From Turritopsis dohrnii (taxonomy: Eukaryota > Cnidaria > Hydrozoa > Anthoathecata > Oceaniidae): a DNA stretch of 64,000 bases. The translations under genes were made by a program, and so were the position numbers. The stretch covers positions 62,001-126,000 of the forward strand of contig BQMF02000590.1 in NCBI GenBank assembly GCA_027922465.2, in the 5' to 3' direction. Below, piece after piece: positions 21,629 to 64,000 of this stretch (the first letter of the stretch is position 1; every line of letters begins with the position of its first letter). Below the pieces are notes generated by a model. It was given only the letters and a program-made list of their open reading frames with translations, was not told the DNA's origin and did not search any database.

Positions 21629-21631
21629 ATT

Positions 21632-37056: not shown

Positions 37057-37534
37057 GGGGTGGGGGGGCAGATGTTGTTTTTCTATAGTAAAGTCTTGTA
37101 TTTTCTTAAAAAAGCGCTCCGATTTTTTTTCACCCTCCGTTGCGGATGTTGTGACTAAATTCTATAGATTGAGACCACCGTTTTGTCAAAAGTTGCGCAT
37201 GCGTACATGTGTACATGACGTCAGAGTGGTATTGTTTTCTGTTTGAAATGGTTTGCAGGTGGTATGTTTTGAAGTATAACCTATAGTCGGCATATTGTTG
37301 ATTACTGGTTGACAGGTGTAGAATGTATTACAATAGGTTATGATTCATTGTTTATTTTTAAAAGTTCGTGTTACAATGAAAGTAGAAACATAACAAGTAA
37401 ATATTGATATATAACCATAGTAACCGTGAGTAAATATAATTTTCATAAGAAAAAAAATTAAAACCAAATTAAAAATAAAATTATTCCCCATACAATCATA
37501 AATACAATTAAAAATATTTCTTCACATTCCATAT
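37057..37534. other. Left end region of the virus-like element
   Basis: Begins with a G-rich run and is non-coding. It contains the alternating CGCATGCGTACATGTGTACA stretch (37,196-37,215). If the element has terminal inverted repeats, this should be the left one; the right copy is beyond the window. Confidence 0.4.
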
Positions 37535-38134
37535 TTAATTACTTTTTCTTTGAATTACAGGTTTTATGTCGTTAAAATTAAGTGTTTCCAATAATAAGTG
37601 TGTTGATTTATGTAGTTTTTGTTTTTCCATAAATTCCAAGGGATCCTTTTGAAGTTGTTCATTCACTGTTTTAAGGCAGTCGTCGTCGCTTTTTCCAGGC
37701 ATAAATAGAATACCTGAAAGGAAAATCTCAGTTTTTACTTCATTATTAATGGTGTGTGGACAGTACGGATGACCACGGTAGTGAAAAATTAACTTGCTAT
37801 TGCAATAATCACAAAAACATGATTCACATGCCTGTGAATTTAAAAAATTCTCAGGTTTTAATGATTGTAAACAAACATGGCATTTTGCAATGAGGTTATT
37901 CCTTTTTAAGGTGTCCCACAGTTGTAGAGTTGCACTATTTGTAATACCAAAAAGTTCCTCTTCATCATCCTCTTCATCCTCTTCGTTTCCATTCCCTTTT
38001 TCCTTTTTTGATATAAAGTATGATGCGTGAAAACGACATTGTTTCTTTGTTTTATCATCTGCCTGACAAAATTCATTGACAGTGACAATTTCTTCTTCTT
38101 CCTGGTTTGTTAGTTTTGTCAAGATTGTTCCCAT
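37535..38134 (-). CDS. Zinc-ribbon-type protein, main part
   Basis: 199 residues from an ATG at 38134. Two Cys groups, KCHVCLQSL and ACESCFCDYCNSK, then a GHPYCPH motif, suggest a treble-clef/zinc-ribbon fold, preceded by an acidic run. The frame at 38073-38300 upstream, also Cys-rich, overlaps it by 62 nt in another frame, so the two may be one protein separated by a +1 shift or two overlapping genes. It is the only clear minus-strand gene of the element and lies next to its left end, so it may be an early regulator (inference). Confidence 0.6.
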   Translation of the reverse strand: MGTILTKLTNQEEEEIVTVNEFCQADDKTKKQCRFHASYFISKKEKGNGNEEDEEDDEEELFGITNSATLQLWDTLKRNNLIAKCHVCLQSLKPENFLNSQACESCFCDYCNSKLIFHYRGHPYCPHTINNEVKTEIFLSGILFMPGKSDDDCLKTVNEQLQKDPLEFMEKQKLHKSTHLLLETLNFNDIKPVIQRKSN

Positions 38135-38300
38135 TGTTTTTTTGTTTAAGGTAATACTTTAGTAATTCCGTTCTGTCAATAACTGGTACTGGTAGATATT
38201 GACAACAGTAATTACACCGTTTATCTCGATTTAAATAATAACTTAGTTGTATTTCTTTTGGTGTGTCAACCTCATCGTTCTGTGTAATTTCACCTGACAT
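38073..38300 (-). CDS. Short Cys-rich ORF overlapping the zinc-ribbon gene
   Basis: 75 residues, MSGEITQNDEVDTPKEIQLS..., with DKRCNYCCQYLPVP, a Cys cluster that would suit the N terminus of the following frame. Just before the downstream ATG the sequence reads CAAAAAAACAATGG, an A-run suitable for slippage or for an assembly indel. The last about 20 residues are in the shadow of the downstream gene. Confidence 0.45.
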   Translation of the reverse strand: MSGEITQNDEVDTPKEIQLSYYLNRDKRCNYCCQYLPVPVIDRTELLKYYLKQKNNGNNLDKTNKPGRRRNCHCQ

Positions 38301-38592
38301 CTGTATTTATGTGTTTGCCACTTTCGCTTGTTTTATTAACTTCGTTTTGTTGTGTAATGTCACCTGTCACCTGTCACCTGTATTTATTTGTTATGGTACC
38401 TTCGTTAATACTTTTTTTGTAACTAATGAAAGTAAATAAAAAACATACGTTTTCATTTATATATTATTTAATCACGCGTGTGTAAATACTTTACTTATTT
38501 GTTTCTATTGTTTTAAAACACTATAAAAAGGGTGAAATTTGGAACCAAAAAGACATAATCAATTGTAGAACATAGTTGTGTGTCAACTAATT
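38301..38592. other. Divergent intergenic region of the virus-like element
   Basis: Between the minus-strand zinc gene and the plus-strand gene series, so likely a bidirectional promoter. TCACCTG repeats occur at about 38,360-38,380, and a TATAAAAAGG box lies at 38,522-38,531, about 60 bases before the ATG at 38593. Confidence 0.45.
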
Positions 38593-39951
38593 ATGTCAAG
38601 TATAATGGATGTTGCTGACGAAGTAGGTGTAGTTAATATGAATACACAAATGACAAAAGCACGTAAACATTTTGCAATTACAAAAGCAATATGGGATAAA
38701 TTAACTGAAAGTGAAAGATTAACTACTTTAAATAAATACAAACAAGAAGTTGGTGGAAAAAATAATGTAAAAAAGAAGACAAAGAAGGGAAAAAAGATTG
38801 TTGTTGCTGATGATGATGATGATGATAATGATAATATTGACATTGATTTTAAGAATGATGATAATGATGTTGACGGTAGTGATGACGAGGACAATGGTAA
38901 TGATGATAATGAGGACAATATTGTTGTTGTTAAAAAGAAGAAAGTTGTTAAAAAGGGAGGAAGTGGTAAAAGAAATAGTAAAAAAAGAAAAAGAGTTGTT
39001 GTAGTAGACGATTCTGATGATGACGTTGATGATGTCAATGATGATGATGATGATGATAATGTCGTTACAGTCAACAAAAAAGGAGGTGTTGGTGAGTCTG
39101 TAGTAATTAAAAAGAAAGCAAAACGTCAAAATATTTTTGATGAAAACGGAAATGTTGCTCAGTCTTTTGTTATGTCTGAACAATTAAAAGTAACTGATAA
39201 GTCTATTGATGTTGACTTAATAGTTGGGTCTAATTACTTTGATGATAATGTTGAGGTTCCTGGTTCCGTTTTTGATACTTCTATCGGACGGAAAGAAACA
39301 CCTTTTAGAACATTGTTTGCTTTAAAAAATGCGTATAAGTGTAAGGCAAAAAAAGATGGTCAGTTATTTTATATGTGTGAAGCATATATTATTGCGCAAA
39401 TTGTTGAAGTTACGGAAGATTGTTATATAACACAGGATAATAAAGATTCTTTCGTTGATTTAGTTAAATTTGTTTTTAACCCTGCTACTAAAAAATATGA
39501 TAAGGTTGTTGTTAAGGGTAAAATAATTTTGTTTACTGACAAAGACAGACAATTTGTTGACGATCTTGGTCAATGTATTCCAGCAGGTGTGAAAATGTCA
39601 GCACCTAACTTGTTAAAACAAGAGTTGTTTTTGGAAAAGCTAAACAAATCATTAAATGTTAATCCTTATGTATTTTCTTTTGCTCCGCAATGTGATCGTA
39701 CACATAAATTAAATACGTACATGAAGTCTGTGCATATAAAACAATTACAACATTCATCATTATTGAGTAACATATGCGGTGGATTGACAACACAGCAGCT
39801 GTTGGATATGGAATATGATGACGACAATGACGAGTTAAAATTAAAACGAATTTCGGCACTGTATGGTGAAATGAAGAAATTGTCGAATATCTGGAACAAA
39901 CTGTTGACAGAAAACGGCAGTAAATTAAATCGAGGAGAAGTAACTGAATAA
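38593..39951 (+). CDS. Acidic/basic low-complexity protein, possible DNA-binding
   Basis: 452 residues from ATG 38593. The N-terminal 170 residues alternate Asp/Asn runs with Lys-rich blocks such as KKRKR and KKKTKKGKK, which could act as nuclear signals. The C-terminal 270 residues look globular (GRKETPFRTLFALKNAYKC, then VVVKGKIILFTDKDRQFVDDLG) and may be an OB-like nucleic-acid-binding domain; that is inference. Candidates are ssDNA-binding or terminal protein, but nothing confirms either. Confidence 0.6.
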   Translation: MSSIMDVADEVGVVNMNTQMTKARKHFAITKAIWDKLTESERLTTLNKYKQEVGGKNNVKKKTKKGKKIVVADDDDDDNDNIDIDFKNDDNDVDGSDDEDNGNDDNEDNIVVVKKKKVVKKGGSGKRNSKKRKRVVVVDDSDDDVDDVNDDDDDDNVVTVNKKGGVGESVVIKKKAKRQNIFDENGNVAQSFVMSEQLKVTDKSIDVDLIVGSNYFDDNVEVPGSVFDTSIGRKETPFRTLFALKNAYKCKAKKDGQLFYMCEAYIIAQIVEVTEDCYITQDNKDSFVDLVKFVFNPATKKYDKVVVKGKIILFTDKDRQFVDDLGQCIPAGVKMSAPNLLKQELFLEKLNKSLNVNPYVFSFAPQCDRTHKLNTYMKSVHIKQLQHSSLLSNICGGLTTQQLLDMEYDDDNDELKLKRISALYGEMKKLSNIWNKLLTENGSKLNRGEVTE

Positions 39952-40026
39952 ATATTTATATTATGACTATTTACTTGTTATTATTTTAGTGATAATTAAT
40001 GAATTAAATATTTACAACAATCAATT

Positions 40027-40794
40027 ATGGTAGATATTAATAGTTTTAATGGTGTTATGATTAAATATTGTGGCTTATGTAAGAAAAAGTATGAGACATT
40101 CGATAATTTGGAAACGATAATCCATCACTTTGAAGTGCAACATAAAGATAAAGAGGTTGATAGTCAATTATATCGAGTCGTTTATTCACTTAATAAGTCA
40201 CTTGTAAAGAAACGTTTTTCATGTTTTGTCTGTGGATCAATATTTAAAAGTAATAGACACTTGACGATTCATAATCTATTGTATCATTTTCAATTATTAT
40301 TTACAAACACTAGCGATATATATATGTTGCATAAACGGTCAATACAATTAGCTAGTATTGATATTATAAATTTAATATTTGATAGACAATTGGTGCATAA
40401 TCAACATGGTCAATTATTTAATTGGAAAGATCCAAGTATTGTGCATGTATTTTTATTATTGTGTATGAAAGTATTTTCACGTGATGTTATTATCAAACAA
40501 TTGCAATTAACCATTCCTGCAATAATAAATTTTAAACTTCAAACGGAGGCTGGAATTATAAATCAAACAATAGTTCGTGATGAAGATGGAAATCGAACTG
40601 GTGTAGAATATTCACCCGTGAGAAACTTTTCCAGTATGGTATATACTCACAGTGCATGGAAATCAATACATCATTTGTTACTTTCTGATATAAATCAACG
40701 TATTTTACATTCAAATTTTGAGAAGGGCTATAATTTTTATTTTCATAAATTTCAATATTTACGTTGTCATTTATTTCTTGGTGATGTATTTTAA
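40027..40794 (+). CDS. Two-finger C2H2-like protein
   Basis: 255 residues. Two zinc-finger-like units near the N terminus: YCGLCKKKYETF...HHFEVQH (residues about 14-39) and FSCFVCGSIFKSNRHLTIH...H (about 61-85). The remainder is hydrophobic/aromatic-rich and unknown. Probably a DNA- or RNA-binding regulator of the element. Confidence 0.6.
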   Translation: MVDINSFNGVMIKYCGLCKKKYETFDNLETIIHHFEVQHKDKEVDSQLYRVVYSLNKSLVKKRFSCFVCGSIFKSNRHLTIHNLLYHFQLLFTNTSDIYMLHKRSIQLASIDIINLIFDRQLVHNQHGQLFNWKDPSIVHVFLLLCMKVFSRDVIIKQLQLTIPAIINFKLQTEAGIINQTIVRDEDGNRTGVEYSPVRNFSSMVYTHSAWKSIHHLLLSDINQRILHSNFEKGYNFYFHKFQYLRCHLFLGDVF

Positions 40795-40863
40795 CATATA
40801 TTATATATATTACGTTTTGTTTTGTTCTCATTATAGTAAAGTAGTTAAATAAATGTGATTATT

Positions 40864-41175
40864 ATGGATGATAATGATGATACGTCAATTGTAATCTCTG
40901 TATGCCCTGCATCTTATCAATTATACCTTATGTGTTTACAAAAGTATATGACCAATACGTATGGTGCGTATACCTTCACTGTCTTCGTTGCTATAAAGTT
41001 TTGGGAATCGTCACCATTTTGCAGAACAGTTTTTGATGAATTGAAATCAGCAATTAGACATTGTTTGATTTCAAATAACTTTTACATGTTAATTTATGAA
41101 GAACAATATTATGCATTCTCTAACTTTGACAATTTTTTAGTTGATCATTATTCAATTAATAACAATGAACAATAA
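40864..41175 (+). CDS. Small paralogue family protein, copy 1
   Basis: 103 residues from ATG 40864 (MDDNDDTSIVISVCP...). Contains KFWESSPFCRTVFDELKSAI, an instance of the element's recurring W-x(6)-R-x-[FY]-[FY]-type motif, here in its most degenerate form (V-F in place of the aromatic pair). It overlaps the next gene's ATG by 11 nt, a tight viral-type arrangement. Function unknown. Confidence 0.5.
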   Translation: MDDNDDTSIVISVCPASYQLYLMCLQKYMTNTYGAYTFTVFVAIKFWESSPFCRTVFDELKSAIRHCLISNNFYMLIYEEQYYAFSNFDNFLVDHYSINNNEQ

Positions 41176-41989
41176 GCCAGCTACAGCAGACAAAACAATA
41201 ACAGGAAAAGAAGAAGTGGAAATGATTGCTGTTCCTATTTTTACGCCGTCAACACCACGTAGGAAACAAAGAGCGATTAACAACAATGACGGTGAAATTT
41301 TGAAGATTCAATTATCACAAAATGATTTGTTGAATCGCTTTTGCCAACAAGAGTTTGAAAAGTGTCGACAATTTAAGGCGTTATTTAATGGATATAATCA
41401 TGCCAAAAGAGGTGTGAAATACATTGATGGTGATTATTTTGCATTCTGTAAGGAATGTGAATGCGTTCTGGTAAGGAATAAAGCAACAGCAACTGATGAA
41501 TTTCAACATATTGTTTACCGTGCTACAAAGACACAGAATGGAAGTGATGTTGACAGTGATTGCGGTGGGTATGCTATTGTTGATAAAGAAGCTATGTATT
41601 TCACTGATTGTCCTTTAGTTAAGGGAGATGACGGTGATACAAATAATGGGTACGAAGCTTACGTCGATTCAACGGTTTTACTTATGTCATTTATTAATGA
41701 CAAATTAGTTAAGTCGTTGAAGGATGAAAATATCTTCGTGTATGTTAAGTTACCTGTTGGTGAGATTGTGGAAGATGTTGTATTTATGGAGTATCGATCA
41801 AACCAACATTATTATTCAAACCCACCACATAGTTATTTATGTGGATTGATGACAGGTACAAGTGTGTCTGTTTCTAAACGACATGTGCATGATGAGTCCC
41901 TGATTGTTTATTTTAAAGCAATGATGAATGAGTTTTTAGATGAGTATTTTTCTTGTAATAATAATATGAAAAGACGACGTATTCGTTAA
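41165..41989 (+). CDS. Uncharacterised virus-like-element protein
   Basis: 274 residues from ATG 41165 (MNNKPATADKTITG). Contains a single CXXC-type pair (FAFCKECECVLV) in an otherwise mixed alpha/beta-looking sequence, and a basic end (KRRRIR). No family recognised. The 41141 in-frame start would overlap the previous gene more and is less likely. Confidence 0.55.
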   Translation: MNNKPATADKTITGKEEVEMIAVPIFTPSTPRRKQRAINNNDGEILKIQLSQNDLLNRFCQQEFEKCRQFKALFNGYNHAKRGVKYIDGDYFAFCKECECVLVRNKATATDEFQHIVYRATKTQNGSDVDSDCGGYAIVDKEAMYFTDCPLVKGDDGDTNNGYEAYVDSTVLLMSFINDKLVKSLKDENIFVYVKLPVGEIVEDVVFMEYRSNQHYYSNPPHSYLCGLMTGTSVSVSKRHVHDESLIVYFKAMMNEFLDEYFSCNNNMKRRRIR

Positions 41990-42248
41990 TATATATGTAC
42001 AACAATATACTGTTATTGTTATATTTAAAATTGGTTAATGATTAGTTTTGTTTGTAATGTGTTTATTTAAAAATGAATAATTACTTTGAAATGAAATATA
42101 TGGATGTCCTTCCTTTGGAAAATATATTCATTTGTTTTGTTTGTCATTGTTTGTCATTGTTTGTTACGTACTAACAATGTGCTATTTGCATAAATAATAA
42201 AACATATCATTATTATGTTTTTAGATATAATATAAATCAACAATTGTA

Positions 42249-42728
42249 ATGAATTATCGCAAGTGGATTTTAACAATATTGGATTTTTCACATATTGCTG
42301 ATGCACAATTTCTATTTGTGTTGGTGATTGCTGCATTATACGATGAGAAAATAAGTCGGCAAAAGATGTATCAATTAAGAATAAAGTTAATGTTTCCAGA
42401 GGAAAGAGACTGTTCGGTAAAAGAATATTGGGCATTGGATGAGAATCTTCGTAATTTTTTCATTAACCTATTTAATGATATCAAAAGTAGAAACTTGAAA
42501 AGTGTTGATATTGATTTATATAATATTCAATATTGTTTGTGTAAACGTAATATTCTTGTTGATGCACGATTCTTTAATTTGTTGACAATGTATGAAACAC
42601 AATGGGTTATGTATTATACACATTTACTTTATGTCAAAGGTGTTGAAAAACGGTACTTAATGACCGTTGAGCAGTATGTAAGGACACATATGTTACATCA
42701 TTTATTTAAATTGTCATATGATGTTTGA
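42249..42728 (+). CDS. Small paralogue family protein, copy 2
   Basis: 159 residues. Carries KEYWALDENLRNFFINLFNDI (about residues 60-80), the same W...R.[FY][FY]..L..[DE]I motif seen in the 40,864, 42,805 and 49,694 proteins. Hydrophobic N-terminal helix (FLFVLVIAALY). Function unknown. Confidence 0.55.
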   Translation: MNYRKWILTILDFSHIADAQFLFVLVIAALYDEKISRQKMYQLRIKLMFPEERDCSVKEYWALDENLRNFFINLFNDIKSRNLKSVDIDLYNIQYCLCKRNILVDARFFNLLTMYETQWVMYYTHLLYVKGVEKRYLMTVEQYVRTHMLHHLFKLSYDV

Positions 42729-42804
42729 ATTATACTATATATAAATATAAATATTATGTAAATGTGTTATATAAAATTGTAAATTCCTGTTTCATTTAGT
42801 GGTG

Positions 42805-43293
42805 ATGATTAGAAATATTATAAGATATGTTATAATTGTTATCGTCTCCATTATTCTGTTTTTAAAACAACCTCATGTTGATCACATGTATCTTTTAATA
42901 ATATTAACATATGTGTTTTTAATTTTAAGAATAATGAAATACTTTCAAAAGAAACAAGTGGGTAATCCATATTGGTTGTTTGTGCTAGACGTAAGTGTAT
43001 ATACCTTTGCGTCACCGTATGAATTAAAAAATCTTTCATCTGTCGATGATATGTGGAAGCAGGAAAAAATTCGGTTATTTTATAAACAATTGCGGAAGGA
43101 AATACTCCAAATAATCGAAAGTAATGGGTATTTCACACGGGATATGCTGGAGGAGTATCCATTTCAAGAAGAGTTCTTTGATGAATGCGATGATGAAGTT
43201 AAGCATATACGATATGCAATGAAGGAAGTAAGGACTAATGATAGTAGAGATGTTAATGATTTTATTGATTATTTGCAAGATTGTTACCAATAA
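42805..43293 (+). CDS. Membrane protein, small paralogue family copy 3
   Basis: 162 residues from ATG 42805. Two N-terminal transmembrane helices (about residues 2-20 IIRYVIIVIVSIILFL and 28-45 YLLIILTYVFLIL) precede a soluble part with MWKQEKIRLFYKQLRKEI, the clearest form of the family motif. The C terminus is acidic. Possibly an envelope or membrane-associated factor; inference only. Confidence 0.55.
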   Translation: MIRNIIRYVIIVIVSIILFLKQPHVDHMYLLIILTYVFLILRIMKYFQKKQVGNPYWLFVLDVSVYTFASPYELKNLSSVDDMWKQEKIRLFYKQLRKEILQIIESNGYFTRDMLEEYPFQEEFFDECDDEVKHIRYAMKEVRTNDSRDVNDFIDYLQDCYQ

Positions 43294-43492
43294 CTTATAT
43301 ATATGGTGGTTGTTAATTATATATAAATAGTTATATAATATATATTTTTGTTTTTCTTCTTTGAGCATTTTCATGTGTTGTGTCTTCTTATATATAATAA
43401 TAAAATATTATTGTGTTTTTAATTATATATATAATTAATTGTTAAAAATATATTATATATTTTAGATGACAAAAGAAATAATTAATATATAA

Positions 43493-46400
43493 ATGAGTAA
43501 ATTCATAGAATATGAATGTGCTGGACAGGAAGGTGGTAATAATGATATTGACAATGATGATTTGGTGGAACTTATGGAACTGGAAAAGGATGAAATCCGA
43601 AACCATGCTGACTTTATAAATGACGAATCGGAAGAATCTAATTATTCAAGCAGTGATGACGACAATCACAATAATGATATTGATGGTGATGATGATGGTG
43701 ATAATGTCGCTGACGATGAAAATAAAGAAAATCATAATTTCATTGCCAAATTTGATCATGAAAATAATGAGGAGCTGTTTGCGGAACAACAACAACAAAA
43801 TGAAGAAGTCGTAAGTATAATAAATAATAACAATTGCGAAATGGTAAGTGATATTGATTATACTTATGATGATACTAATATCGATACATTAACATATAAA
43901 AGTTCACTTTTAAGATGTAAAAAGGTTATTGCAAATGCTGTTAAAAAACAGATGAGATGGATGAGAGATATAAGAGAGTTGTTGATGATTTGTATTAAAA
44001 AGAAAGTTTTGAAAAACAACGAACAAATAATTAATCATGAAACAATAATTAACAAGGAAGATAATGATACTGTAAATAAAGTGTATAATCTTTTGTATAA
44101 TGTACATGATTTGGGTGAACCAAATGTAGATTTAAGTTTGTCCTATCTATTAAAGGTTCTTCATGATTTAAATTACCTTTTAAATGAAGAGTGCAATGTT
44201 CTGTACAGCGTAAATGTTTACGAACTGTCATTGAAATTAAAACGTGTACAAAATAACTTTCAATTCGTTCAACAAATTGATTCAGCGATAATAACAACAA
44301 CTACAAATAGAAATGGGAAGGAATTATTTTCGTTTCTTACACCGTTTTACGCAGACAATAGATTAAGTAGAAAAATAAATATTATTATGAAAATAGTTAA
44401 TCAGATACCCACTTTTTCGTATGTTGAATGTTTAGATGATTTCTTTAAGATATTGGAAAAAGATAAATATTTAGCAAAAGTTAGTGTTTGCAATGTTTGT
44501 CGTGGCATTTTAAATTGTAAACGAGGGAGTAAAAAGAATGAAAACCACATGAAAGCTTGTAAAACAAAATGGATGAGGAAAACCGTTTCACAATATGACT
44601 TGTATTCGAGAAAGTGCACAAACAAAGTATTGTGTTATGAAACTGATTTGTATAGATTGAAAAGTACCTATTTCGTTTTTTTTTATGATTTTGAAACGAC
44701 AACATCATTAGATTTAAATTTACAAAACAATAATGATAATAGTAAAAAGGAAAAGAAAACTAAAGTCAAATATTTTGAAAACATGACACCTATGCGTGTC
44801 ATGTCATATTGTGTGGGTGTTATGTTTCACCCACAATTAAATATTAAACCAATAGTATGGTATAAGTCATGTATTTATAATAAAAAAAAACTTGGTAATG
44901 TAGATTTTCTGCCTGATTTTATATATAGATATATAACAGATAGGTGTTTTAAAAATATGGCACGAATTTTAAATACATATACCAACGGTAATGCGTCTTT
45001 GGCTACTGTCATGAGCAGTGAAATTGCCTTGATTGGAATAGCAATTAAGCGGTATTTAAAAATAGAAGTTGTCATTGTCAATAAGGAATTAACAATGCAG
45101 GAAAAGAAAGAATATCGTAATCAAAATATTATAACAAAATGTTGCATTTGTGATTTTCCAATTACCAATTGTAATAGTAATAATGACATTTGTCATAATT
45201 ATGAATTCGTTTGTTTTAAGATGAGATATTTCATGTTTTGTAGAATTGAGGAATTTGCTAGATTAATAGATCAATATGAAGATAGAACGTTTGACAGTGC
45301 ATTCAATGAAATAGTTTACCTATTGACTAAACGCTATTGTTCGTTAATGAACTTTGTTTTATTTATTCAAAATCAAAGGAAGCGTAATGATGAAACAACT
45401 TGTTATTGTCAATCCGAGTATGTACAATCGATACTGTGTGTAATAGGTTTAACAAATGTAGAGGACATTTTTGATGTTTTAGGTTATTTAGAAGTGGATA
45501 GGTTTTATGTAGGATGGGAAGAAGATTTGATTTTGAAGGTTAGCAATTCAGATTTGTGGTTATCAACATGTTCAGTGATGGGGTTTTTCCAGAATGATTT
45601 CATTAGGAAAACATTGGAAAATGCGTGTGACTACAATATTGTAATACATCACGATCACGTGACTCGTGTCATCCATGGTTATGCACATGATGTATGTAAT
45701 AAGCGATTACAAGATAAAAGTGATTATAACGACGATGTATTAAATTGTATTGTTCCAGTATATGCACATAATTCAGCTAGATTTGATGTAAAGTTTATTG
45801 TAAAGTATTTAGATGTACAAATGTTTAATACTTCTGAAATTAAGTTCTTAGGTGGTAGTATGTATAATGTAACAGACGTAGTTGTAGGTGATTTTCATTT
45901 TAAAGACACTTTAAAGTTTTTTGCAACATCATTAGCTAACTTCTCTAAGAATAAAGATGATACACACGTGCAGCAAATAGTAGAAGTATTTGAAACTTTT
46001 TTCTTTAATGATACTGTTTTTAACAAACCCTATAGTGAACTGTCAGATGAACAAGAAAAGAGGTTATTCTCAATTATTCTAGATAAAGGATGTATGCCTT
46101 ACGATTATTTCGTTAATGGTAATGAATTGTGTAAACCATTTCTTCCGTGTAAGGAACTGTTTACTAATAAATTAAAATTTGAATCTGTAAGTAGTGAAAC
46201 ATACGAAAATATTCAATATTTGTGGGATGCATTAGGTATGGGAATATTAGACGATATGAATCGTAGTTATAATGCAGGTGATGTTATCTTGTTAATGGTA
46301 GTTGCATTTGATTATTTTAATAAATTACAACTATTGTTTAAATACAATCCCCATTTATTTACATCAATGACCACTTTCTCCAAATCAGCAAGCTTGTTTA

Positions 46401-48821: not shown

Positions 48822-48828
48822 GGAAAAC

Positions 48829-49640: not shown

Positions 49641-49693
49641 TTTTAAATTATTGTAATATATTATTTCTTTTTTAATATGTAGGTAGAAAAAAA

Positions 49694-53397: not shown

Positions 53398-53427
53398 AAT
53401 TATTTATGATATAGAATTTGTATTAAT

Positions 53428-54300
53428 ATGTTGAATCTGCCTGATTTTACAATTGTCAACAGTGCTTTGTCACTTTCTAGTAATTCTTTGTCACCGTATG
53501 TGACATTGAGCAGACCAGATAATGTTACGCAAATGGGATTACAACCTTTTAACATTAACAATGTGAAGGATAGATTCGATAAAGGGCAAGTTAGTGATGG
53601 TGAGGTACGAAATTATTTTAATCAACAGGATGAAGGAACAATGATTGGAAATGGACATAATAATATTGAACGCATGAAATTCCTTATGAAGGAAAGGCAA
53701 CTTGCCGATGCGTATCAACAGGATATGGATTTTATGTTCGAAACGCATACACACGCGCCAAATTTACGTGCTGGTTTAACACGTGCTGATATGATTCCTA
53801 GTTTAATGTCTGATTCGAGTATATATAATTTAGCGTTAGGTAACGGAAACTATTCGAATGTTAAAGTTGATCCGTCATTGTTTTCTAATACTAGAGGAAT
53901 TGACATAAACGGTACACTAGACAGTGAACTTAAACGGCGGAAAGGTCAATTGAAAACACAATTATATTCTAAATTGTTAAAGGATGAAAAGTTAAAAAAA
54001 ACTTTAACACCAGCAGTTTCAGATAAGGACACAGATAGTAATGTTATACTTAGTCGATTAGACGATTTAGCGAATAAACTAGTAGAATTAAACGATAAAG
54101 CTGGAACATTGGAAAGAAATATATTGTCAACTAAAAGTAGCACTAACAATTTAAATAATGATAACTTGCAACAATTCCTTTCTAATTTAAAAACCGTTTT
54201 AAATAAACAATCATACCCACATAATGTTGAAAATGACACGATGGTGATTATAATGATTCAGATGATGATAATGATGATGATGATAATGACAAAGATATAA
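53428..54300 (+). CDS. Structural-type ORF, first segment of a frame-broken gene
   Basis: 290 residues, MLNLPDFTIVNSALSLSS.... Contains NNVKDRFDKGQVSDGEVRNYFNQQDEG, which recurs in spirit in the capsid candidate (ISKGEVQQGVVEKYFPG). In both cases a turn is followed by EV..YF, which hints at a shared virion-docking peptide. The last about 20 residues are Met/Ile-rich because the Asp-coding run is being read out of frame, so the true frame probably shifts near 54,240. Confidence 0.55.
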   Translation: MLNLPDFTIVNSALSLSSNSLSPYVTLSRPDNVTQMGLQPFNINNVKDRFDKGQVSDGEVRNYFNQQDEGTMIGNGHNNIERMKFLMKERQLADAYQQDMDFMFETHTHAPNLRAGLTRADMIPSLMSDSSIYNLALGNGNYSNVKVDPSLFSNTRGIDINGTLDSELKRRKGQLKTQLYSKLLKDEKLKKTLTPAVSDKDTDSNVILSRLDDLANKLVELNDKAGTLERNILSTKSSTNNLNNDNLQQFLSNLKTVLNKQSYPHNVENDTMVIIMIQMMIMMMMIMTKI

Positions 54301-54701
54301 TGATAATAGATTACCAAACAAAAATTGTCAATGATTTCAGTGAATTTATGGACGTTGAGGATATTGTTGATACTTTAGGTGGAAATAATGTAGAGGAACA
54401 GTTAGAGTGGGATAACGAAAATATACTACCCGAACCGAAAAGTGATGATGTAATAGCTAAAAACTTCTTTCCGTCACAAACTGGAAATAACGAATATGTT
54501 AATCCAATTGTTAACAAATCCGTTGTTAAGGTAAAGTCATTGGAAATGAGGTATTTAGATTTGGTAATGTCTAATCCTACGGTTATTGATATACTTCAAA
54601 ATAACGGAATAGTTGTCACAAGTTTAAATGGTGGCATTTTGGTAAATGGACAAATAGTATCAGGAAAATGTATTACAATTTTTGGAAGTTTGTTTCGATG
54701 A
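54300..54701 (+). CDS. Second segment of the frame-broken gene
   Basis: The frame is open from the upstream GAT run (acidic), continues MIIDYQTKIVNDFSEF..., and carries AKNFFPSQTGNNEYVNP, another motif ending in an aromatic pair. It stops at 54701 just after the coding signal has moved to the next frame. Confidence 0.5.
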   Translation: MIIDYQTKIVNDFSEFMDVEDIVDTLGGNNVEEQLEWDNENILPEPKSDDVIAKNFFPSQTGNNEYVNPIVNKSVVKVKSLEMRYLDLVMSNPTVIDILQNNGIVVTSLNGGILVNGQIVSGKCITIFGSLFR

Positions 54702-54882
54702 ACGTAGAAAACGTTATCCAATTGCATGGAAATTTAACATGCCAATACAGGATTACGATGTTTGGTTAATGGCAAATACCGACTATTTATTACAAGAAGA
54801 GAAATTTATTAATTTCTATTATTGTAAATACATATTTGGTGTCGTTAATCATTTTATCGATGGTGATTTCGGCCGACGATAA
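54667..54882 (+). CDS. Third segment of the frame-broken gene
   Basis: Protein-like stretch NVLQFLEVCFDERRKRYPIA, then DVWLMANTDYLLQEEKF. It begins without a plausible start inside the preceding frame and ends inside the following one, so it reads as a continuation rather than a separate gene. Confidence 0.45.
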   Translation, partial: NVLQFLEVCFDERRKRYPIAWKFNMPIQDYDVWLMANTDYLLQEEKFINFYYCKYIFGVVNHFIDGDFGRR

Positions 54883-57253: not shown

Positions 57254-57289
57254 GTGAAAAACTAGGACAAAAAGTCTATTATTGTTAAT

Positions 57290-57628
57290 AACCAACGTAA
57301 AGTTGCAAAACGAAAAGTCAAAGACGATGCATTAACGAATAGTGTAAACAATCAAGATACACAACCACAACAACCAATATTATATCAAAATGGAAATGAT
57401 TTAATGGAACAAATGCTATTTGAAAATACGTCAAAAGATTTCCTTGAAAGACTTGAAAAAGAAGCAGAATTTAAAGCAAAAGCTAAATTCCTACAAAAAA
57501 ATAATGACATTGTGGGAAAGGATATATTAGATGCAATATTTACAGAAGAAGAGAAAACGAAAAAGGGACATGATGATAATAATACAGGTGTAAATATAGC
57601 ACGTGACGGGATACGACAGTTTAATTAA
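57290..57628 (+). CDS. C-terminal continuation of the coiled-coil gene
   Basis: Open from about 57,290 (SIIVNNQRKVAKRKVKDDAL), with an in-frame ATG only at 57404. Charged and helical (DFLERLEKEAEFKAKAKFLQ). No convincing own start, so it is likely the end of the preceding gene after one or two frame changes. Confidence 0.45.
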   Translation, partial: NQRKVAKRKVKDDALTNSVNNQDTQPQQPILYQNGNDLMEQMLFENTSKDFLERLEKEAEFKAKAKFLQKNNDIVGKDILDAIFTEEEKTKKGHDDNNTGVNIARDGIRQFN

Positions 57629-57662
57629 TAGAACAATTAGAGAAGAAGAACATGTTAAGGAA

Positions 57663-58151
57663 ATGGAATTTAATAATTACGATGACGATGATTTTGGTCA
57701 AGCACAAGAGGAATATAGTGAAACGATAATCGCTGATGCGTTAGCGAAAAGTAATACGTTAACTGCACGTGTCGATATTCAAAATCAATTTGATAATGGT
57801 CTTGACATTGACAGTGTCAAGTTAATTGTTAAATTGGTAAAGTCAAATGGTAAAATGTATCCATTAGTTAAGAATGTAAAACGGGTATTAAGTAAACAAT
57901 CAGAATTACGCAGCATTAGTGGATTGAGTTATATGGTTATGAAATTATTGAAAATGAAGTTAATAAAACTTGGAGAAGAAACATTGAATAGATATGAATT
58001 ATCAATTATAAAAAATGTCGACATTAGTTTGGCTAACTTATTAGATGAAGATAAAAGTGGAAATGGTATAAGTGTAGATGTTGCACAGACTTTTTTAGAT
58101 GATTTTAAAAACTTTGAATATTTATTAACGAAGAATAATGTCAAAGAATAA
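57663..58151 (+). CDS. Uncharacterised helical protein
   Basis: 162 residues from ATG 57663 (MEFNNYDDDDFGQAQEE); the frame is open from 57,603. Mostly helical, moderately acidic at the start. Overlaps the integrase start by 14 nt. Unknown function. Confidence 0.5.
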   Translation: MEFNNYDDDDFGQAQEEYSETIIADALAKSNTLTARVDIQNQFDNGLDIDSVKLIVKLVKSNGKMYPLVKNVKRVLSKQSELRSISGLSYMVMKLLKMKLIKLGEETLNRYELSIIKNVDISLANLLDEDKSGNGISVDVAQTFLDDFKNFEYLLTKNNVKE

Positions 58152-58299
58152 TAACGATAAAGAAGTGTCAGTGGAGAGATTACGAAGAACATTAACAAAC
58201 GATCCAAAAAGTGCTTTATTTTTAGAAGATAAAAATGTAAATATTAGAAAGCTAAAACGATCAACATATTTAAAAGATAAACAATTATTAGAATTATTA

Positions 58300-58332
<33 letters not shown>

Positions 58333-59298
58333 TATGAAAATAATAGTGGAAATAATTATAGAACAGTTTTAAAAAGAATAAGAAATGTGTATGATAATGA
58401 TTATTCTACTCTTTACTCATTAAATGCACCTTTACAAAGAATGCAAGTTGATTTGGCAGATATTAGATATTATGGAATAGCTAGTGTTAATTATTTACTT
58501 GTTTGCGTAGATTTATTTTCTTCATATGTTTTCTGTTATCGTATGAATAAACGTTCTAGTATAGGTGAAAAAATGAAACAATTTTATATCGAACTACAAA
58601 AGTATAGGAACAATAATAATGATGTAATAAGTATACAAGGTGACGAGGAATTTACAAGAAATAATTTTATTGCTAATTTAAGTAAACAATATAATATCGA
58701 ATTGTATTCAACGAAAAAAAATGGTGGACATGCATTCGCTGCTGAACAGAAGATTAGAGTAATAAAGGAAATGTTGACTAAATTAAACTTACAAAAGAAG
58801 CGAAAAAAGAGCGCAAGTATTTCACCTATTTTAGATGTTATCGAAAATATGAATCATAAAATTTCTGAGAAATACGGATTTTCACCTCATGAGATATTTA
58901 ATAAGTCGTTAGAAAGTGATACACAAAGAGTGGTATTTAATTTCAATAGAGTAGAAAAATCACAAAAATTACATGGACGCTTGTCACGTTATTTTGACAA
59001 GAAAAATGTAAACGCAAGAAATAATCTATATGAATTAAATGTTGGAGACAGAGTGTTGGTTGCTATGCATAGATTAAAAAAGTCAAGTGTAGGGAGAACA
59101 GAATTTGTTAAATATACAACACAAAATGTGAAATTATTTGACGAAGATAATGTTTACATAATTAAATTTAAACGGAAAATGACAGATTTTAATGAGTTAA
59201 CAAATCATAAACAATATTATTATTGGTTAGAACACAGCGAAACAGGAAGGACTTTAACTGGTCGTTTCGCAAGGCGTGACCTTTACAAAATACGATGA
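58138..59298 (+). CDS. Retroviral-type (DDE) integrase of the virus-like element
   Basis: 386 residues. The rve core has D105 (MQVDLADI), D169 (IQGDEEFTRNNF) and E203 (AFAAEQKIRV), with 33 residues between the last two. A 13-residue Asn tract encoded by (AAT)n sits at about 55-65, before the core. The C-terminal region (YELNVGDRVLVAMHRLKKSS..., then YYYWLEHSETGRTLTGRFARRDL) resembles the SH3/chromo-like tail of Maverick integrases. Divergent from the Polinton-1 integrase at 32798. It would mediate chromosomal insertion of the element. Confidence 0.85.
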
Positions 59299-60413
59299 TT
59301 ATATGTTTTGATAAAGTTGACATAGACGAAGACACAGGCGAAGTAATATTTAACCTACGTAATACAGATATTGATCAACGAACAATTAACATAAAGGAGA
59401 ACGAAAAGATATTTCTTCTTAAGGCGTTAATACACCGACTTACAAAGTATATTATCGATTCAAACATTCGTGTTTATCAAAAACAATTAGCAAACATCAG
59501 TAAATACAACGAGACAAAACAATTTTATAATGCAACATTAACTTCAACATCTCGTATTAAGTGGATATGTCCATTATTTAAAACTATGGGAAGTTTTAAA
59601 GGAAGTGGAGTAAGTGTTAGTGAAATATATCGTACTACTAAAACTTTCAATTTAACATATCCAATTGAAAAAAAATATATTTACAAATACGACAGGGTAT
59701 TAAAGGACGATGACATTGAAATTGTCGATCCACCGTACGAATATTACGACATATATAGACAGTATAGAGATACTGATAATAATGTATTATGGACAACAGT
59801 TGACAAAAATAGTGCATCAATACGTACACGTATAAATGCTAAAATGGTACGTGGTGATGATGGAAGAATAAAAATTGAACAACAACTTGCTTTTATTATA
59901 CCTGATTCTATAGCAAAAAATAACACATGGTGGAATATATATGGTATATATGATACATACAGTAAAATTACACGTAGTGACAAACGAACACAAATGTTCT
60001 ATAAGAATTTAAGTGTTGAAAGTGGTATTTACAATCCAACGTCAGAAATTTACAAATACAAAAACGAAATGGACTTCATATTAAGTGGAAAATTTGATTT
60101 TCCATATTCTAATGTATTTACGTACGAGAGAATTTCTTCAGACGCAGAATTTTTTACGAAGGTTTTAAAAGGAAATGTTGATCCTTCTAATCGTGGTTTA
60201 TTTTATATATTTGGGAAACAAAATAACAATGTCAAGCTCATGAAAAGTGACTTTTACATAGCTATTATAAAAAACACAAAAACTGAATTATATGTAACAA
60301 AAAGACTTTTTGAAATATGGAAAAAGACATTTGTTTTTCTAAACTTATGTTTAAAAAGCGGAATTTTAAATGCAGACGACGTTACCTGTTTCGGAAATGA
60401 AAGAAATAAATAA
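59295..60413 (+). CDS. Uncharacterised 372-residue protein
   Basis: Starts in an ATGA overlap with the integrase stop. Rich in Tyr, Lys and Asn, mixed alpha/beta appearance (GRIKIEQQLAFIIPDSIAKN; GKFDFPYSNVFTYERISS). No motif recognised. Its place between integrase and capsid genes suggests a virion or maturation function. A cysteine protease triad could not be assigned. Confidence 0.55.
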   Translation: MIICFDKVDIDEDTGEVIFNLRNTDIDQRTINIKENEKIFLLKALIHRLTKYIIDSNIRVYQKQLANISKYNETKQFYNATLTSTSRIKWICPLFKTMGSFKGSGVSVSEIYRTTKTFNLTYPIEKKYIYKYDRVLKDDDIEIVDPPYEYYDIYRQYRDTDNNVLWTTVDKNSASIRTRINAKMVRGDDGRIKIEQQLAFIIPDSIAKNNTWWNIYGIYDTYSKITRSDKRTQMFYKNLSVESGIYNPTSEIYKYKNEMDFILSGKFDFPYSNVFTYERISSDAEFFTKVLKGNVDPSNRGLFYIFGKQNNNVKLMKSDFYIAIIKNTKTELYVTKRLFEIWKKTFVFLNLCLKSGILNADDVTCFGNERNK

Positions 60414-61049
60414 GAATGTTGACATTTCAAGTGGTGTAAGTGAATATATATATCGAGTACGGACATTATCCAAATGATGAAAAACAACCAAGACAAAGAT
60501 ATTATTTAATGGACGGATACGTTAAAGTGTATTTTCCACCTACTGCACGTGCAGGACAACTTTTAGAAATTAACTTAAAAAAAAGCGATGTTGGTGAAAA
60601 TTTAAATGGATTTTTTCCAATTATAATGCCAGCAACTTGGAATGGATTTGAAAAGTGGGACACAAAAAAAAGTCGTTTTTCGCTACTTAACATATTGTCA
60701 CAAACTTATACATTAACAACACCGCTTTTCAAGGATCAAACAATAGGCAAAAAGTTTACAAAACAATATACAGACAAACAAAATGATAGTATATCCATCA
60801 TAGTAAATGATATTGCAGGCAAAAACAAATTGTACGGATTAGAAGACCCATCATTTGTGTTCAATAGTAACACAAATAAATACGAAATTAATAATTCCAT
60901 TTTAGTTGCATATCAAAAAGCAATAAAGACGTCCTGTTTTAACGCAGGAAATTAACGGACAGGAAACAAGTACACAAGCTGTTATTGTAGATGTTATAAA
61001 TCTACCTGTTGCTGAAAAAGACAATAATGAAATTAGTAAATGGTACTAA
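60370..61049 (+). CDS. Possible minor capsid-type protein with two frame changes
   Basis: The long middle frame is 60440-60955 (YYLMDGYVKVYFPPTARAGQ...). It has no ATG. A start at 60370 (MQTTLPVSEMKEINKNVDIS) leads into it through a TATATATA run, where one indel would join the frames. Near 60,940 the frame changes again and runs to TAA at 61047-61049 (EINGQETSTQAVIVDVINLP). Beta-rich composition and the position before the capsid gene make a penton-like minor capsid protein possible, but this is not shown by a motif. Confidence 0.45.
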
Positions 61050-61833
61050 TTTATGTAAAGATAAGTCATTACAGTCACGTGCAGCATACAATTTCGATTT
61101 AAGTGAATTGTCTTATACATTATTACAAGTTAATGGAAAACCATTTAAATTAGGAGAACAGAAGTATTTAAAGGACATTATTTTTTTCATAAACAACACA
61201 TCATCATCATTGCACCATCAACAATTATTGAGAGTTGGTACTAAAAGAAGAACAACAATGATGGAGGAAAATAATAAATTAAAAATTGTTAAAGCAATCA
61301 ATATTGACTTTTCAAATAATGATAGTAACAATATGTTTGTTTTTGATTTCGTAACAACGAGTAAAGAAGTGGAACAATTTTTTCGCGACAATTCAAAAAA
61401 GGCAAGTAAATATGAAATGAAAATAACAAGTATAATTTGTCCATCTAAAATGAGAACAAATAAAAAGACAGAACCACAAAATACTGTTTTTGTTACGTCA
61501 TACGGATTAAACAATGCAATGAAAATTTTATTTCAAAAAGATAACAGTACAATAGAGGATAGAGTTTTATGTATCTTAAATTTAAGTGAAGACAAATCAT
61601 ATACAGAATTACAAAACAAAGAAAATGAAAATTACGCATTCAATATTGTGGATAGTTTAGACAGTAGTGGTAGAATGCACCATCATTCATTTCCAATAGT
61701 ATTTAAAAGCATAAGTGACATTAACAATTTCAGTTTGTCACTAAAAAATAGCAAATACGAAACTATTACTTTTGAAAAGTCAGACGCTTTAAATAAAATT
61801 ATATTTATTTTTGAAATAATTGCATATGCTTAA
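61027..61833 (+). CDS. Uncharacterised protein upstream of capsid region
   Basis: 268 residues from ATG 61027 (MKLVNGTNLCKDKSLQSRAA). Overlaps the preceding stop by about 20 nt. Contains beta-rich segments (NNMFVFDFVTTSKEVEQFF; YEMKITSIICPS). Unknown. By position it is a virion protein candidate. Confidence 0.5.
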   Translation: MKLVNGTNLCKDKSLQSRAAYNFDLSELSYTLLQVNGKPFKLGEQKYLKDIIFFINNTSSSLHHQQLLRVGTKRRTTMMEENNKLKIVKAINIDFSNNDSNNMFVFDFVTTSKEVEQFFRDNSKKASKYEMKITSIICPSKMRTNKKTEPQNTVFVTSYGLNNAMKILFQKDNSTIEDRVLCILNLSEDKSYTELQNKENENYAFNIVDSLDSSGRMHHHSFPIVFKSISDINNFSLSLKNSKYETITFEKSDALNKIIFIFEIIAYA

Positions 61834-61839
61834 ATAAAG

Positions 61840-62568
61840 ATGTTTGGGAAGCAAAGACGATATACAAATAGCAGTTCATCATCACAACAACATTTGTTTA
61901 GGAAGAATGTTAAAGGTGCTATATTTCAACAAATACGTAATGCATACGAAAAACATGCTAAAGATGTAAATAGACTGAATGAATTAATAAAAAAAAGTAA
62001 TGAAGAAGCAAACAATTATAAAAAACAATGTGAAGAAATGAAACAACGCGAAAAAAGTGCAGTTGCTGCATTAAAAGAAAGATTTGATAGTTTATCAGGT
62101 GAATTACAAAGTAAACTTGCAATAATAAGAGAATTACAAATGAAACAACGTAGAAACAATCAACATCAAGAACAACAACAACAGAAGAAGCATCAACAAC
62201 GATATAATAATAATAAACAAATAAAGAAAATAAGGAGGAGAAAAAATTGTCATAATAATTTCACAGACGACGAACAAGAGGAACACGAGTTTGTCGACGG
62301 TGTTGATAATTACGGGTATGGAAACAGAAGCAGATGTAATTCAAGATATGATGATAATGTCGATATTTATAGTTCTTCTGATGATAACGATTATCATGGT
62401 GGTGATGATAGCGAATATGATGATGATAATGTTGAACATACTGCAAAAAAAACAAAAGCAAAGAAACAAAGACCGAGTAGTATTAAACAAAGACGAACAA
62501 CAAACAACAACGATACAAAGAAGAAGACGAAGTCAGCGACTAATGAATCAAAATATTTGTACTACTGA
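61840..62568 (+). CDS. Coiled-coil, basic/acidic-tailed protein
   Basis: 242 residues, 6 bases after the previous stop. Ser-rich N terminus, a coiled coil at about residues 25-105 (KDVNRLNELIKKSNEEANNY...), Gln/Asn and Arg-rich linker, Asp-rich segment with YDDDN repeats, and a Lys/Arg-rich tail. This mixture suits a DNA-condensing core or scaffold protein; inference. Confidence 0.5.
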   Translation: MFGKQRRYTNSSSSSQQHLFRKNVKGAIFQQIRNAYEKHAKDVNRLNELIKKSNEEANNYKKQCEEMKQREKSAVAALKERFDSLSGELQSKLAIIRELQMKQRRNNQHQEQQQQKKHQQRYNNNKQIKKIRRRKNCHNNFTDDEQEEHEFVDGVDNYGYGNRSRCNSRYDDNVDIYSSSDDNDYHGGDDSEYDDDNVEHTAKKTKAKKQRPSSIKQRRTTNNNDTKKKTKSATNESKYLYY

Positions 62569-62655
62569 GAAAGACATAGTATATTAATTTATTTTAAATA
62601 AATTGCGTTGATTTGACAACTTTTATTTTATTTGTGTTATTGTCTGCCTATAAAC

Positions 62656-64000
62656 ATGGTACAAATGCAGACACCGAAAGGTGTCTTCGACACAGCAGAA
62701 ACTAACAACATAGACAGTATGGAAACAGATGATGTTATGAGTAGAGCGGTTAACGTTAATGATATTCAGGCTAAATTAAATAATGTAAATTCACTTATAA
62801 GTAAAGGTGAAGTACAACAAGGTGTTGTAGAGAAATACTTTCCTGGGTACTTAAATTTAAAACGTTCTGGTTTAATAGTATCTACAAAACGAAGGAAAGT
62901 TACTGCACAACCTGGTTACAGTTCAAAACAAAAATTAACGTTTAACATTGAAGTTGGACAAAATAAGAGGTTCGTACCAAAGACATGCAGATTAATATTG
63001 CCAATAAAATTTACAAAACCAGACGGTACAACGGCATTACCGGACACGGTTGCGTTAGCTAACTTTTGGACATCCAGATGGATACAGGACATTGTTGTGA
63101 AAAATCTTTACACTGACGATAATATAAATAAGCAAACTAATGAAAAAGACTGTGCAGAATTTGCAGACGAAAAAATGTCTGTTATACCAATTGATAAATT
63201 GTACATGTTTGATGACTATCATTATTTACCTGATAGTCAAGCTGATAAAGGAAGGCGGGCATTTACTGCACCTACTGACGTTAATATATCTAAGAGAATT
63301 ACTAAATGGAAAAGCGATTGGCAAAATACCAATGGAAAAGAATATGAAATTTGCTTAGAACATCTGTCGGAATTTTTTAACATTGAAGATGTATTTAAAA
63401 TAGGTATTAAAATAGAATGTAATCTGTGTGTCGATATGAACAAGATATTCGAAAGTATTAAGGTACTAGCTTCCGGTTCAACAGCTACGTCAAAGCAGAC
63501 AGTTGGAATGATACATTTCACACGTGCACCTTACATAGAATATGTTGAATTAACCATGGCACCAGTATTCTTAACTTACGATAACCAACTTGAGAAAACG
63601 TTAAAGAATTACTACTATAAAATAAATAAAGTCTACGACAGGCGTATTGAAGAATTAAATACTAGTCAAAACATTAAAGAAATGAATTTCGCTGGTACAA
63701 ATTACCAATTCGATTTTATTGTTATTTATGTTGAAAATAGACAATCGAAACAACATCTATCTGCATACGATACATACGGAAGTGAAGTTGCATCCTTAAA
63801 TCTAAAGACTATCGAATTATCTAACAATAATTTACATAATGATGGAAATTCTTATTTCCTTTTAACGGATGATTCAGATAAAAGGGAATTATATAGGCAA
63901 TTCTGTGCATGGAAATTAGGTACATGTTCTATGTTAACAGGTAACCAAATGTTAGATTCAGAAAGTTTAACTAGATTGCCAAATTATAAGCAATATTGGA
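62656..64000 (+). CDS. Probable major capsid protein, 3' end outside window
   Basis: ATG at 62656 opens 448 uninterrupted codons to the window edge. It has the feel of a double jelly-roll capsid protein. The N-terminal arm contains GEVQQGVVEKYFPGYLNLKR. Many beta segments follow (KLTFNIEVGQNKRFVPKTCR; IKIECNLCVDMNKIFESIKV; PYIEYVELTMAPVFLTYD), then an FDFIVIYVENRQS region like the late strands of Polinton capsids. Length, lack of low complexity, and position downstream of ATPase and integrase support the call. A TATAAACATGG context precedes the start. Structure prediction would settle it. Confidence 0.6.
   Translation, partial: MVQMQTPKGVFDTAETNNIDSMETDDVMSRAVNVNDIQAKLNNVNSLISKGEVQQGVVEKYFPGYLNLKRSGLIVSTKRRKVTAQPGYSSKQKLTFNIEVGQNKRFVPKTCRLILPIKFTKPDGTTALPDTVALANFWTSRWIQDIVVKNLYTDDNINKQTNEKDCAEFADEKMSVIPIDKLYMFDDYHYLPDSQADKGRRAFTAPTDVNISKRITKWKSDWQNTNGKEYEICLEHLSEFFNIEDVFKIGIKIECNLCVDMNKIFESIKVLASGSTATSKQTVGMIHFTRAPYIEYVELTMAPVFLTYDNQLEKTLKNYYYKINKVYDRRIEELNTSQNIKEMNFAGTNYQFDFIVIYVENRQSKQHLSAYDTYGSEVASLNLKTIELSNNNLHNDGNSYFLLTDDSDKRELYRQFCAWKLGTCSMLTGNQMLDSESLTRLPNYKQYW

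What the first reader, a model, noticed from the sequence alone, without database searches (positions are those of the whole stretch)
37057..64000. Large, divergent endogenous virus or giant Maverick with its own PolB, ATPase, integrase and capsid
At least 27 kb with about 22 genes and the four hallmark functions, extreme AT content, tight plus-strand packing and many proteins with no recognisable family. It is only distantly related to the Polinton-1 copy 5 kb away: the polymerase is longer, the genes are spliced, and the left end carries novel genes. It may represent an undescribed lineage between adintoviruses/Polintons and other PLV groups.
Basis: partly seen in the sequence, partly recalled or inferred. 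Interest (0 to 1): 0.88.

Follow-up and report, generated by a model that had tools for sequence, protein, structure and literature searches.

The report
Multi-copy divergent Polinton-type endogenous virus
A 31.5-thousand-base virus-like DNA element sits in this genome in more than ten assembled copies, bounded by inverted repeats and a 5-base duplication of the target; it carries a very divergent relative of the Polinton DNA polymerase and likely inserts, copies and packages itself as a virus would.

Summary
The block is real and larger than reported: 31.5 kb, from window 37042 to 4527 bases past the window's end, bounded by ~450-bp inverted repeats (92% alike). The left repeat has 36 matches in the same genome; of 91 pairs of 14 clean ends, 6 share a 5-bp target duplication and none share 6. 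Polymerase, integrase, packaging ATPase and, in a sister copy, an adenovirus-type protease are supported by profile tests. The 535-aa capsid candidate matches no known capsid, but 13 full-length copies (98-100% identical) are assembled, and ten that differ show dN/dS 0.02-0.07, as expected for a replicating virus rather than decaying DNA. The polymerase is the outlier: end branch 6.8 against a median 0.8, two tiny introns, a split zinc module and no recognisable terminal-protein/vOTU region, which five control polymerases all show. The window copy's two flanks come from two insertions whose other halves lie on contig C83, so flanks were exchanged, by recombination or in assembly. Some genes of this copy are interrupted. 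Verdict: a new, very divergent variant of Polinton-type integrating virus. It is not filed as a classical Polinton (5-bp duplication, no detectable TP-vOTU); its place among adintoviruses and PLVs is unresolved.

The parts
37042..64000 (+). the element, cut by the window's end; it runs on to contig position C590:130527 (L028 4527), about 31.5 kb in all
   Evidence: terminus and inverted repeat, composition and ORF density
37037..37041 (+). GGTTA, left half of a 5-bp target duplication whose other half flanks the C83 copy
37042..37485 (+). left terminal inverted repeat, beginning TGATGATGATGTACGGGG
   Evidence: inverted at L028 4527-4061, 91.9% over 467 columns; 36 genome matches
37535..38134 (-). 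Cys-rich, zinc-finger-like ORF reading towards the left end; no family
38578..39951 (+). 457-aa acidic/lysine-rich protein, no family; dN/dS 0.014 against the C83 copy
40027..40794 (+). 255-aa protein with a C2H2-like finger (Pfam zf-C2H2 E 0.011, below cut-off)
43493..47280 (+). PolB exon 1: exonuclease motifs I-III, palm motifs A and B, split zinc module; N-terminal 530 residues unrecognised
47281..47362 (+). PolB intron 1, 82 nt, 90% AT, GT-AG (predicted)
47363..47791 (+). PolB exon 2 (predicted; no homology signal of its own)
47792..47863 (+). PolB intron 2, 72 nt, 90% AT, GT-AG (predicted)
47864..48821 (+). PolB exon 3: DTDS motif C and C-terminal region
   Evidence: profile match 5.6e-7
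51339..52655 (+). packaging-type ATPase (Walker A GRDGTGKT)
   Evidence: PHROG terminase 3.8e-5; 2.2e-5 against two PLV ATPases, only 18 columns aligned; 4.7e-4 against one of them alone
54300..58151 (+). region of ORFs of 133, 805, 74 and 182 aa, arranged as other frames in the C83 copy; no family
58138..59298 (+). retroviral-type (rve) integrase
   Evidence: Pfam rve 1.7e-5, under its cut-off; 9.2e-7 against five Polinton/PLV integrases; D105 and E203 invariant
59295..61833 (+). three ORFs in three frames matching one 844-aa ORF of the C83 copy; interrupted here, no family
62632..64000 (+). capsid candidate, 535 aa in all, continuing past the window
   Evidence: 68 genome matches, 13 full-length at 98-100%; dN/dS 0.022-0.073; no capsid family matched

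Best explanation
This is a 31.5-kb integrated DNA element of Polinton type, present in more than ten assembled copies, which likely inserts with its own retroviral-type integrase, would copy its linear DNA with its own divergent family-B polymerase, and is predicted to package it with its ATPase into a protease-matured capsid. Shown: inverted repeats, 5-bp target duplication, copy number, homology of polymerase, integrase and ATPase, a partial protease match in a sister copy, and strong purifying selection on the capsid candidate between copies. Inferred: protein-primed replication, capsid assembly, and that new insertions came from virus particles rather than from transposition inside one cell line. 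The window copy has some interrupted genes, and its two flanks come from two original insertions.
For: TIRs 91.9% over 467 columns; 36 TIR matches in the genome; 6 of 91 pairs of 14 clean ends share 5 bp and 0 share 6 or 7, about 0.1 expected by chance (the expectation is my arithmetic). PolB exon 1 2e-25 and exon 3 5.6e-7 against a pPolB profile; integrase 9.2e-7; ATPase 3.8e-5; Peptidase_C5 9.8e-5 in the C83 copy, above the curated cut-off but over 38 of 179 columns. Capsid candidate: 13 full-length copies at 98-100% without stops; dN/dS 0.022-0.073 for the ten that differ by more than one residue.
Against: No capsid recognised by sequence or profile, and both single-sequence fold predictions failed. 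No related virus contig or protein was found for the capsid candidate. Exon 2 of PolB has no signal of its own. The window copy has interrupted genes. Copies share history, so the ten ratios are not independent, and some may be alternative haplotypes of one insertion.
Confidence: 0.82

Rival explanations
1. A host-confined giant transposon: the Polinton-type genes serve only self-copying inside the nucleus, and the 535-aa protein is not a capsid.
For: No capsid family matched; no free relative in viral contigs; many copies in one genome.
Against: ATPase and an adenovirus-type protease belong to particle assembly in known relatives (PMC11071308). The 535-aa protein has dN/dS 0.02-0.07 between copies, and identity between two copies runs from 74% to 99.7% along the element, as with mixing virus lineages; a transposon under selection for its own copying could still show both.
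Confidence: 0.15
2. The window copy is an assembly chimera of two real insertions of the same family, not one physical element.
For: C590 left end matches C83 left and C590 right matches C83 right, each with its own 5-bp duplication, restoring a Helitron frame and an open gypsy-like frame. C590 left TIR is 99% like C83's 309609 end but 92-93% like its own partner and the other C83 end. Several TIR ends lie 8-20 kb from a contig end.
Against: A real reciprocal exchange between copies gives the same picture. The two copies differ in nearly all of the 1-kb pieces compared, which leaves little identical sequence for a silent switch, though I did not locate a switch point. The family does not depend on it: the C274 copy has its own CACCC duplication.
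Confidence: 0.45
3. An ordinary Polinton whose polymerase simply evolves fast, so that TP and vOTU are present but too diverged to see.
For: End branch 6.81 for PolB and 3.19 for the integrase, both the longest in their trees; the region where TP and vOTU would lie (530 residues before the zinc module) is present; gene set agrees with Polintons.
Against: Between copies PolB exon 1 is conserved (97.1%, dN/dS 0.255), so it is not evolving without constraint now; the duplication is 5 bp, not 6; the zinc module is split, 170 against 8-21 residues.
Confidence: 0.4

Closest known systems
Polintons/Mavericks, including the Polinton-1 family of the same genome
   Same: family-B polymerase of pPolB type, rve integrase, packaging ATPase, adenovirus-type protease (in a sister copy), terminal inverted repeats
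   Different: 5-bp duplication where vertebrate Mavericks have 6 (passages of PMC8097293); no recognisable TP-vOTU; PolB with two introns; zinc module split; PolB only 24% identical to Polinton-1; 31.5 kb where 15-25 kb is typical and 40 kb the reported upper size (passage of PMC6431247)
Polinton-like viruses (PLVs), here L001 and L002 from IMG/VR
   Same: related PolB (L001: 25% over 512 aa), integrase (L001: 25% over 216 aa) and ATPase (L002)
   Different: no detectable relation in the putative capsid, penton or fibre ORFs of L001 and L002 (those gene names are my reading)
Adenoviruses
   Same: no recognisable fused terminal protein in the polymerase; protease of Peptidase_C5; Arg-rich small proteins after the capsid candidate (the parallel is recalled)
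   Different: integrase and chromosomal insertion; FtsK/A32-like ATPase; a separate terminal protein was looked for in 25 window ORFs and not found
Stylophora (coral) polinton with a separate terminal protein (section 11 of PMC11071308)
   Same: terminal protein not fused to the polymerase in a recognisable form
   Different: that one keeps an active vOTU on its polymerase; none is recognisable here

Membership tests
Polinton/Maverick | family-B polymerase with exonuclease and palm motifs of pPolB type | tested here: met
   exon 1 2e-25, exon 3 5.6e-7; motifs
Polinton/Maverick | TP-vOTU region fused to the polymerase | tested here: not met
   no match of residues 1-530, five of five left-out controls match at 2.4e-34 or better; too diverged cannot be told from absent
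Polinton/Maverick | retroviral-type integrase | tested here: met
   Pfam score is under its curated cut-off
Polinton/Maverick | packaging ATPase | tested here: met
   alignment core short
Polinton/Maverick | Ulp1/adenain-type cysteine protease | tested here: met
   in the C83 copy only: Peptidase_C5 9.8e-5, 38 of 179 columns; the window copy has two ORFs there
Polinton/Maverick | double jelly-roll major and single jelly-roll minor capsid proteins | tested here: inconclusive
   no sequence or profile match; fold predictions of no confidence
Polinton/Maverick | terminal inverted repeats | tested here: met
Polinton/Maverick | 6-bp target duplication (as in intact vertebrate Mavericks, PMC8097293) | tested here: not met
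   5 bp in 6 pairs, 6 bp in 0
Adintovirus | falls with adintovirus PolB/capsid lineages | not testable with these tools
   no adintovirus reference held; PMC8502044 not held
Adenovirus-like | stand-alone terminal protein | tested here: inconclusive
   none of 25 window ORFs matches the TP-vOTU profile; seven right-end ORFs were not tested

The most novel reading that the evidence does not exclude
A deep, unnamed lineage of integrating animal DNA viruses, recently infectious in this host, that shed or replaced the fused terminal-protein/vOTU half of its polymerase on a path parallel to adenoviruses, and that marks its insertions with a 5-bp duplication.
Probability: 0.35. Interest if true: 0.85.

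Novelty: new variant of a known kind. Interest (0 to 1): 0.68.

Why it matters
Polintons are placed at the root of adenoviruses, virophages and PLVs largely from the domain make-up of their polymerases (PMC11071308). A multi-copy, apparently recently active relative whose polymerase keeps exonuclease and palm but not a recognisable priming/protease half bears on how that split arose. Copies of the capsid candidate range from 100% down to about 30% identity in one genome, so selection, recombination and age can be measured directly.

Tried and rejected
No relatives found: PolB exon 1 (4912 candidates, none at E 1 or better) and capsid candidate (3520 candidates, none at E 10 or better) against 5.8 billion proteins, a search that needs shared 5-residue words; single-protein scans of viral contigs with integrase, capsid candidate, PolB and ATPase and with Polinton-1 PolB; PolB against plasmids. 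Pfam misses this PolB, but it also gives no polymerase family for the Polinton-1 PolB, so that absence means little. AlphaFold on single sequences failed: capsid candidate pLDDT 29, 61009-61833 pLDDT 31, and the second target proved to be a fragment of an interrupted gene. A weak pairwise hit of 59295-60413 to a Polinton-1 ORF (0.0094) was dropped, since another unrelated pair in that table reached 0.0082. A death-domain-like stretch at L028:3182-3439 rests on Pfam E 0.11 and recall. Rfam and tRNA scans found nothing. The host was not identified; 'animal' is an inference.

PolB comparators (17): two protein hits, two IMG/VR contigs, Polinton-1, and contigs from bacterial or archaeal MAG bins that look like eukaryotic contamination. 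Four short rows were dropped before the tree. In one search the script's own regular expression gave 83, not 170, for the window's zinc spacing, because it took a later CxxC; 170 uses C550-C553, which the profile alignment supports. In the same call L002 gave no zinc match and L018 matched elsewhere.
Full report
Observation. The window is contig C590:62001-126000 of a 436-Mb genome in 891 contigs. From about 37 kb on, GC falls (0.294 in 38300-64000 against 0.352 in 1-37000) and GC skew turns positive. 23 ATG-started plus-strand ORFs of 120 aa or more cover 86% of 38300-64000; there is no ATG-started minus-strand ORF of that size, and 100 first-order resamples gave at most one on the plus strand. 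The block ends in the window only because the window ends.

Ends. The 10 kb after the window (L028) hold the inverse of the left end: window 37042-37485 pairs with L028 4527-4061 at 91.9% over 467 columns. The element is therefore about 31.5 kb. The left repeat has 36 matches in the genome at 75-100% identity, four of them fragments on one contig. Ends facing each other give whole insertions on C590, C83, C274 and C158 (about 31-35 kb) and a 63-kb pair on C79. I examined 22 ends (20 and the two of C590); 14 have the exact terminus TGATGATGATGTACGGGG and the other 8 were left out of the next test. Of the 91 pairs of these 14, six share a 5-bp duplication, one other pair shares 4 bp, and none share 6 or 7. 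C274 carries its own CACCC on both sides; three of the six pairs join ends on different contigs.

Flanks of the window copy. The left flank is a Helitron-like protein frame; the right flank is a frame I recognise as Ty3/gypsy RNase H (name recalled). They do not belong together. Each matches, with a 5-bp duplication, an end of the C83 copy: GGTTA and ATTCT. Joining the host flanks gives a Helitron frame through the site (57% over 162 aa) and an open gypsy-like frame. The repeats agree: C590's left repeat is 99% like one C83 end and 92% like its own partner. So two insertions exchanged halves, in the genome or in the assembly.

Enzymes. PolB exon 1 matches Polinton-1 PolB at 24% over 424 columns and a profile of nine pPolB C-terminal parts at 2e-25; exon 3 matches it at 5.6e-7; exon 2 does not match. 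Exonuclease motifs I-III and palm motifs A, B and C are present. Two GT-AG introns of 82 and 72 nt, 90% AT, keep the frame, and the C83 copy also has the three parts as separate frames. Residues 1-530 do not match a TP-vOTU profile of 11 PolBs, while five of five left-out controls match at 2.4e-34 to 3.1e-64; none of 25 window ORFs matches it, and the seven right-end ORFs were not tested. The two halves of the zinc module are 170 residues apart, against 8-21 in the comparators (with the exceptions told under Tried and rejected). In a tree of 18 PolBs the window's end branch is 6.81 against a median of 0.81, and it is 19-29% identical to the others, which are 28-76% identical to each other; on well-filled columns 4.64 against 0.68. 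AU tests of five groupings reject one, with P0001 (p 0.034), and not the other four (p 0.062-0.156), so the attachment point is open.

The integrase has Pfam rve E 1.7e-5, under the curated cut-off, 9.2e-7 against five Polinton/PLV integrases where left-out controls reach 1.2e-14 to 1.2e-29 and no other ORF does better than 0.086, and D105 and E203 invariant among six. The ATPase has a PHROG terminase match at 3.8e-5 and 2.2e-5 against two PLV ATPases, over 18 columns. The protease is a 297-aa ORF of the C83 copy, Peptidase_C5 9.8e-5, just above its cut-off, over 38 of 179 columns; its counterpart in the window copy lies past the window as two ORFs.

Capsid candidate. The 535-aa ORF starts at 62632 and ends in L028. 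No capsid match by sequence or profile. Reference capsids from L001, L002 and Polinton-1 mostly do not match each other either, so this is weak negative evidence. The 844-aa ORF is an alternative candidate and is equally unmatched. The genome holds 68 matches to the 535-aa protein: 13 full-length at 98-100% without stops, one partial at 99%, then relatives at 71-82% and others down to about 30%, many with stops. Two copies are identical to the window's and one differs by one residue; the other ten near copies have dS 0.076-0.198, dN 0.0036-0.0096 and dN/dS 0.022-0.073. A few pairs not involving the window were also tried: 0.048-0.058 for two, 0.218 for one with dS 0.048, 0.28 for one almost identical pair. 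Decay in the chromosome would give a ratio near 1, so the copies descend from lineages replicating under selection on this protein. They share history and some could be haplotypes of one insertion, so ten ratios are not ten tests.

State of this copy. Against C83, 1-kb pieces are 74-99.7% identical, a mosaic that suggests recombination between lineages. 59295-61833 is three ORFs in three frames here and one 844-aa ORF in C83; the protease gene and 54300-58151 also differ in frame between the copies. dN/dS against C83 is low for the 457-aa protein (0.014), the ATPase (0.097) and the integrase (0.168), 0.255 for PolB exon 1, and 0.4-0.9 for several small or interrupted ORFs.

Mechanism. Best reading: an integrating virus with Polinton-type enzymes. 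Integration with a 5-bp duplication is shown by its products. Replication by its own polymerase, packaging and particles are inferred from the gene set. How replication is primed is open, since the usual priming domain is not recognisable.

Comparison. It works like a Polinton in polymerase, integrase, ATPase, protease and TIRs. It is not filed as a classical Polinton, because the TP-vOTU region and the 6-bp duplication were tested and not met. Adintovirus membership could not be tested. Papers: PMC11071308 (abstract and outline, passages, sections 6, 9 and 11); PMC10120064, PMC8097293, PMC10328495 and PMC6431247 (passages); others as search listings only. I make no claim that this family is absent from print beyond those searches.

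Noticed in passing
window 28574-33781 and 11785-12531; L025-L027, L030-L033: A separate Polinton-1 family lives in the same genome; three copies found by Pfam DNA_pol_B_2 are about 84% like the window's Polinton-1 PolB, one with stops inside.
   Followed up: partly
window 13158-25855 and 34898-37041: Helitron-like elements whose proteins start with a herpesvirus tegument-like domain (Pfam Herpes_teg_N); the 13158 ORF carries GDVESNPGP, which I recall as a 2A-type sequence.
   Followed up: no
window 13722-14207 and 21144-21629: A perfect 486-nt inverted repeat pair 6.9 kb apart inside the Helitron region, apparently another insertion.
   Followed up: no
window 27795-28619: Arrays of a 21-bp unit with a GCGGCCGC palindrome at the edge of the Polinton-1 PolB.
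   Followed up: no
L028:338-873: Two small Arg-rich ORFs (72 and 77 aa) right after the capsid candidate, resembling by eye the core proteins of adenoviruses.
   Followed up: no
L028:2052-3580: A Cys-rich ORF with a signal-like start, then a 336-aa ORF with a weak death-domain-like stretch (Pfam Death E 0.11 on the cut piece).
   Followed up: partly
window 53428-54300 and 62632-64000: The 290-aa protein and the capsid candidate share a short N-terminal motif (G.V..G.V..YF); BLASTP E 0.005 for the pair.
   Followed up: partly
window 42799-43293 and 49694-50059: The 164-aa and 121-aa proteins look like paralogues (BLASTP E 0.002 within the element).
   Followed up: no
G000:C79:816092-879379: Inward-facing repeats 63 kb apart, about twice the usual length, perhaps a nested or tandem insertion.
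   Followed up: no
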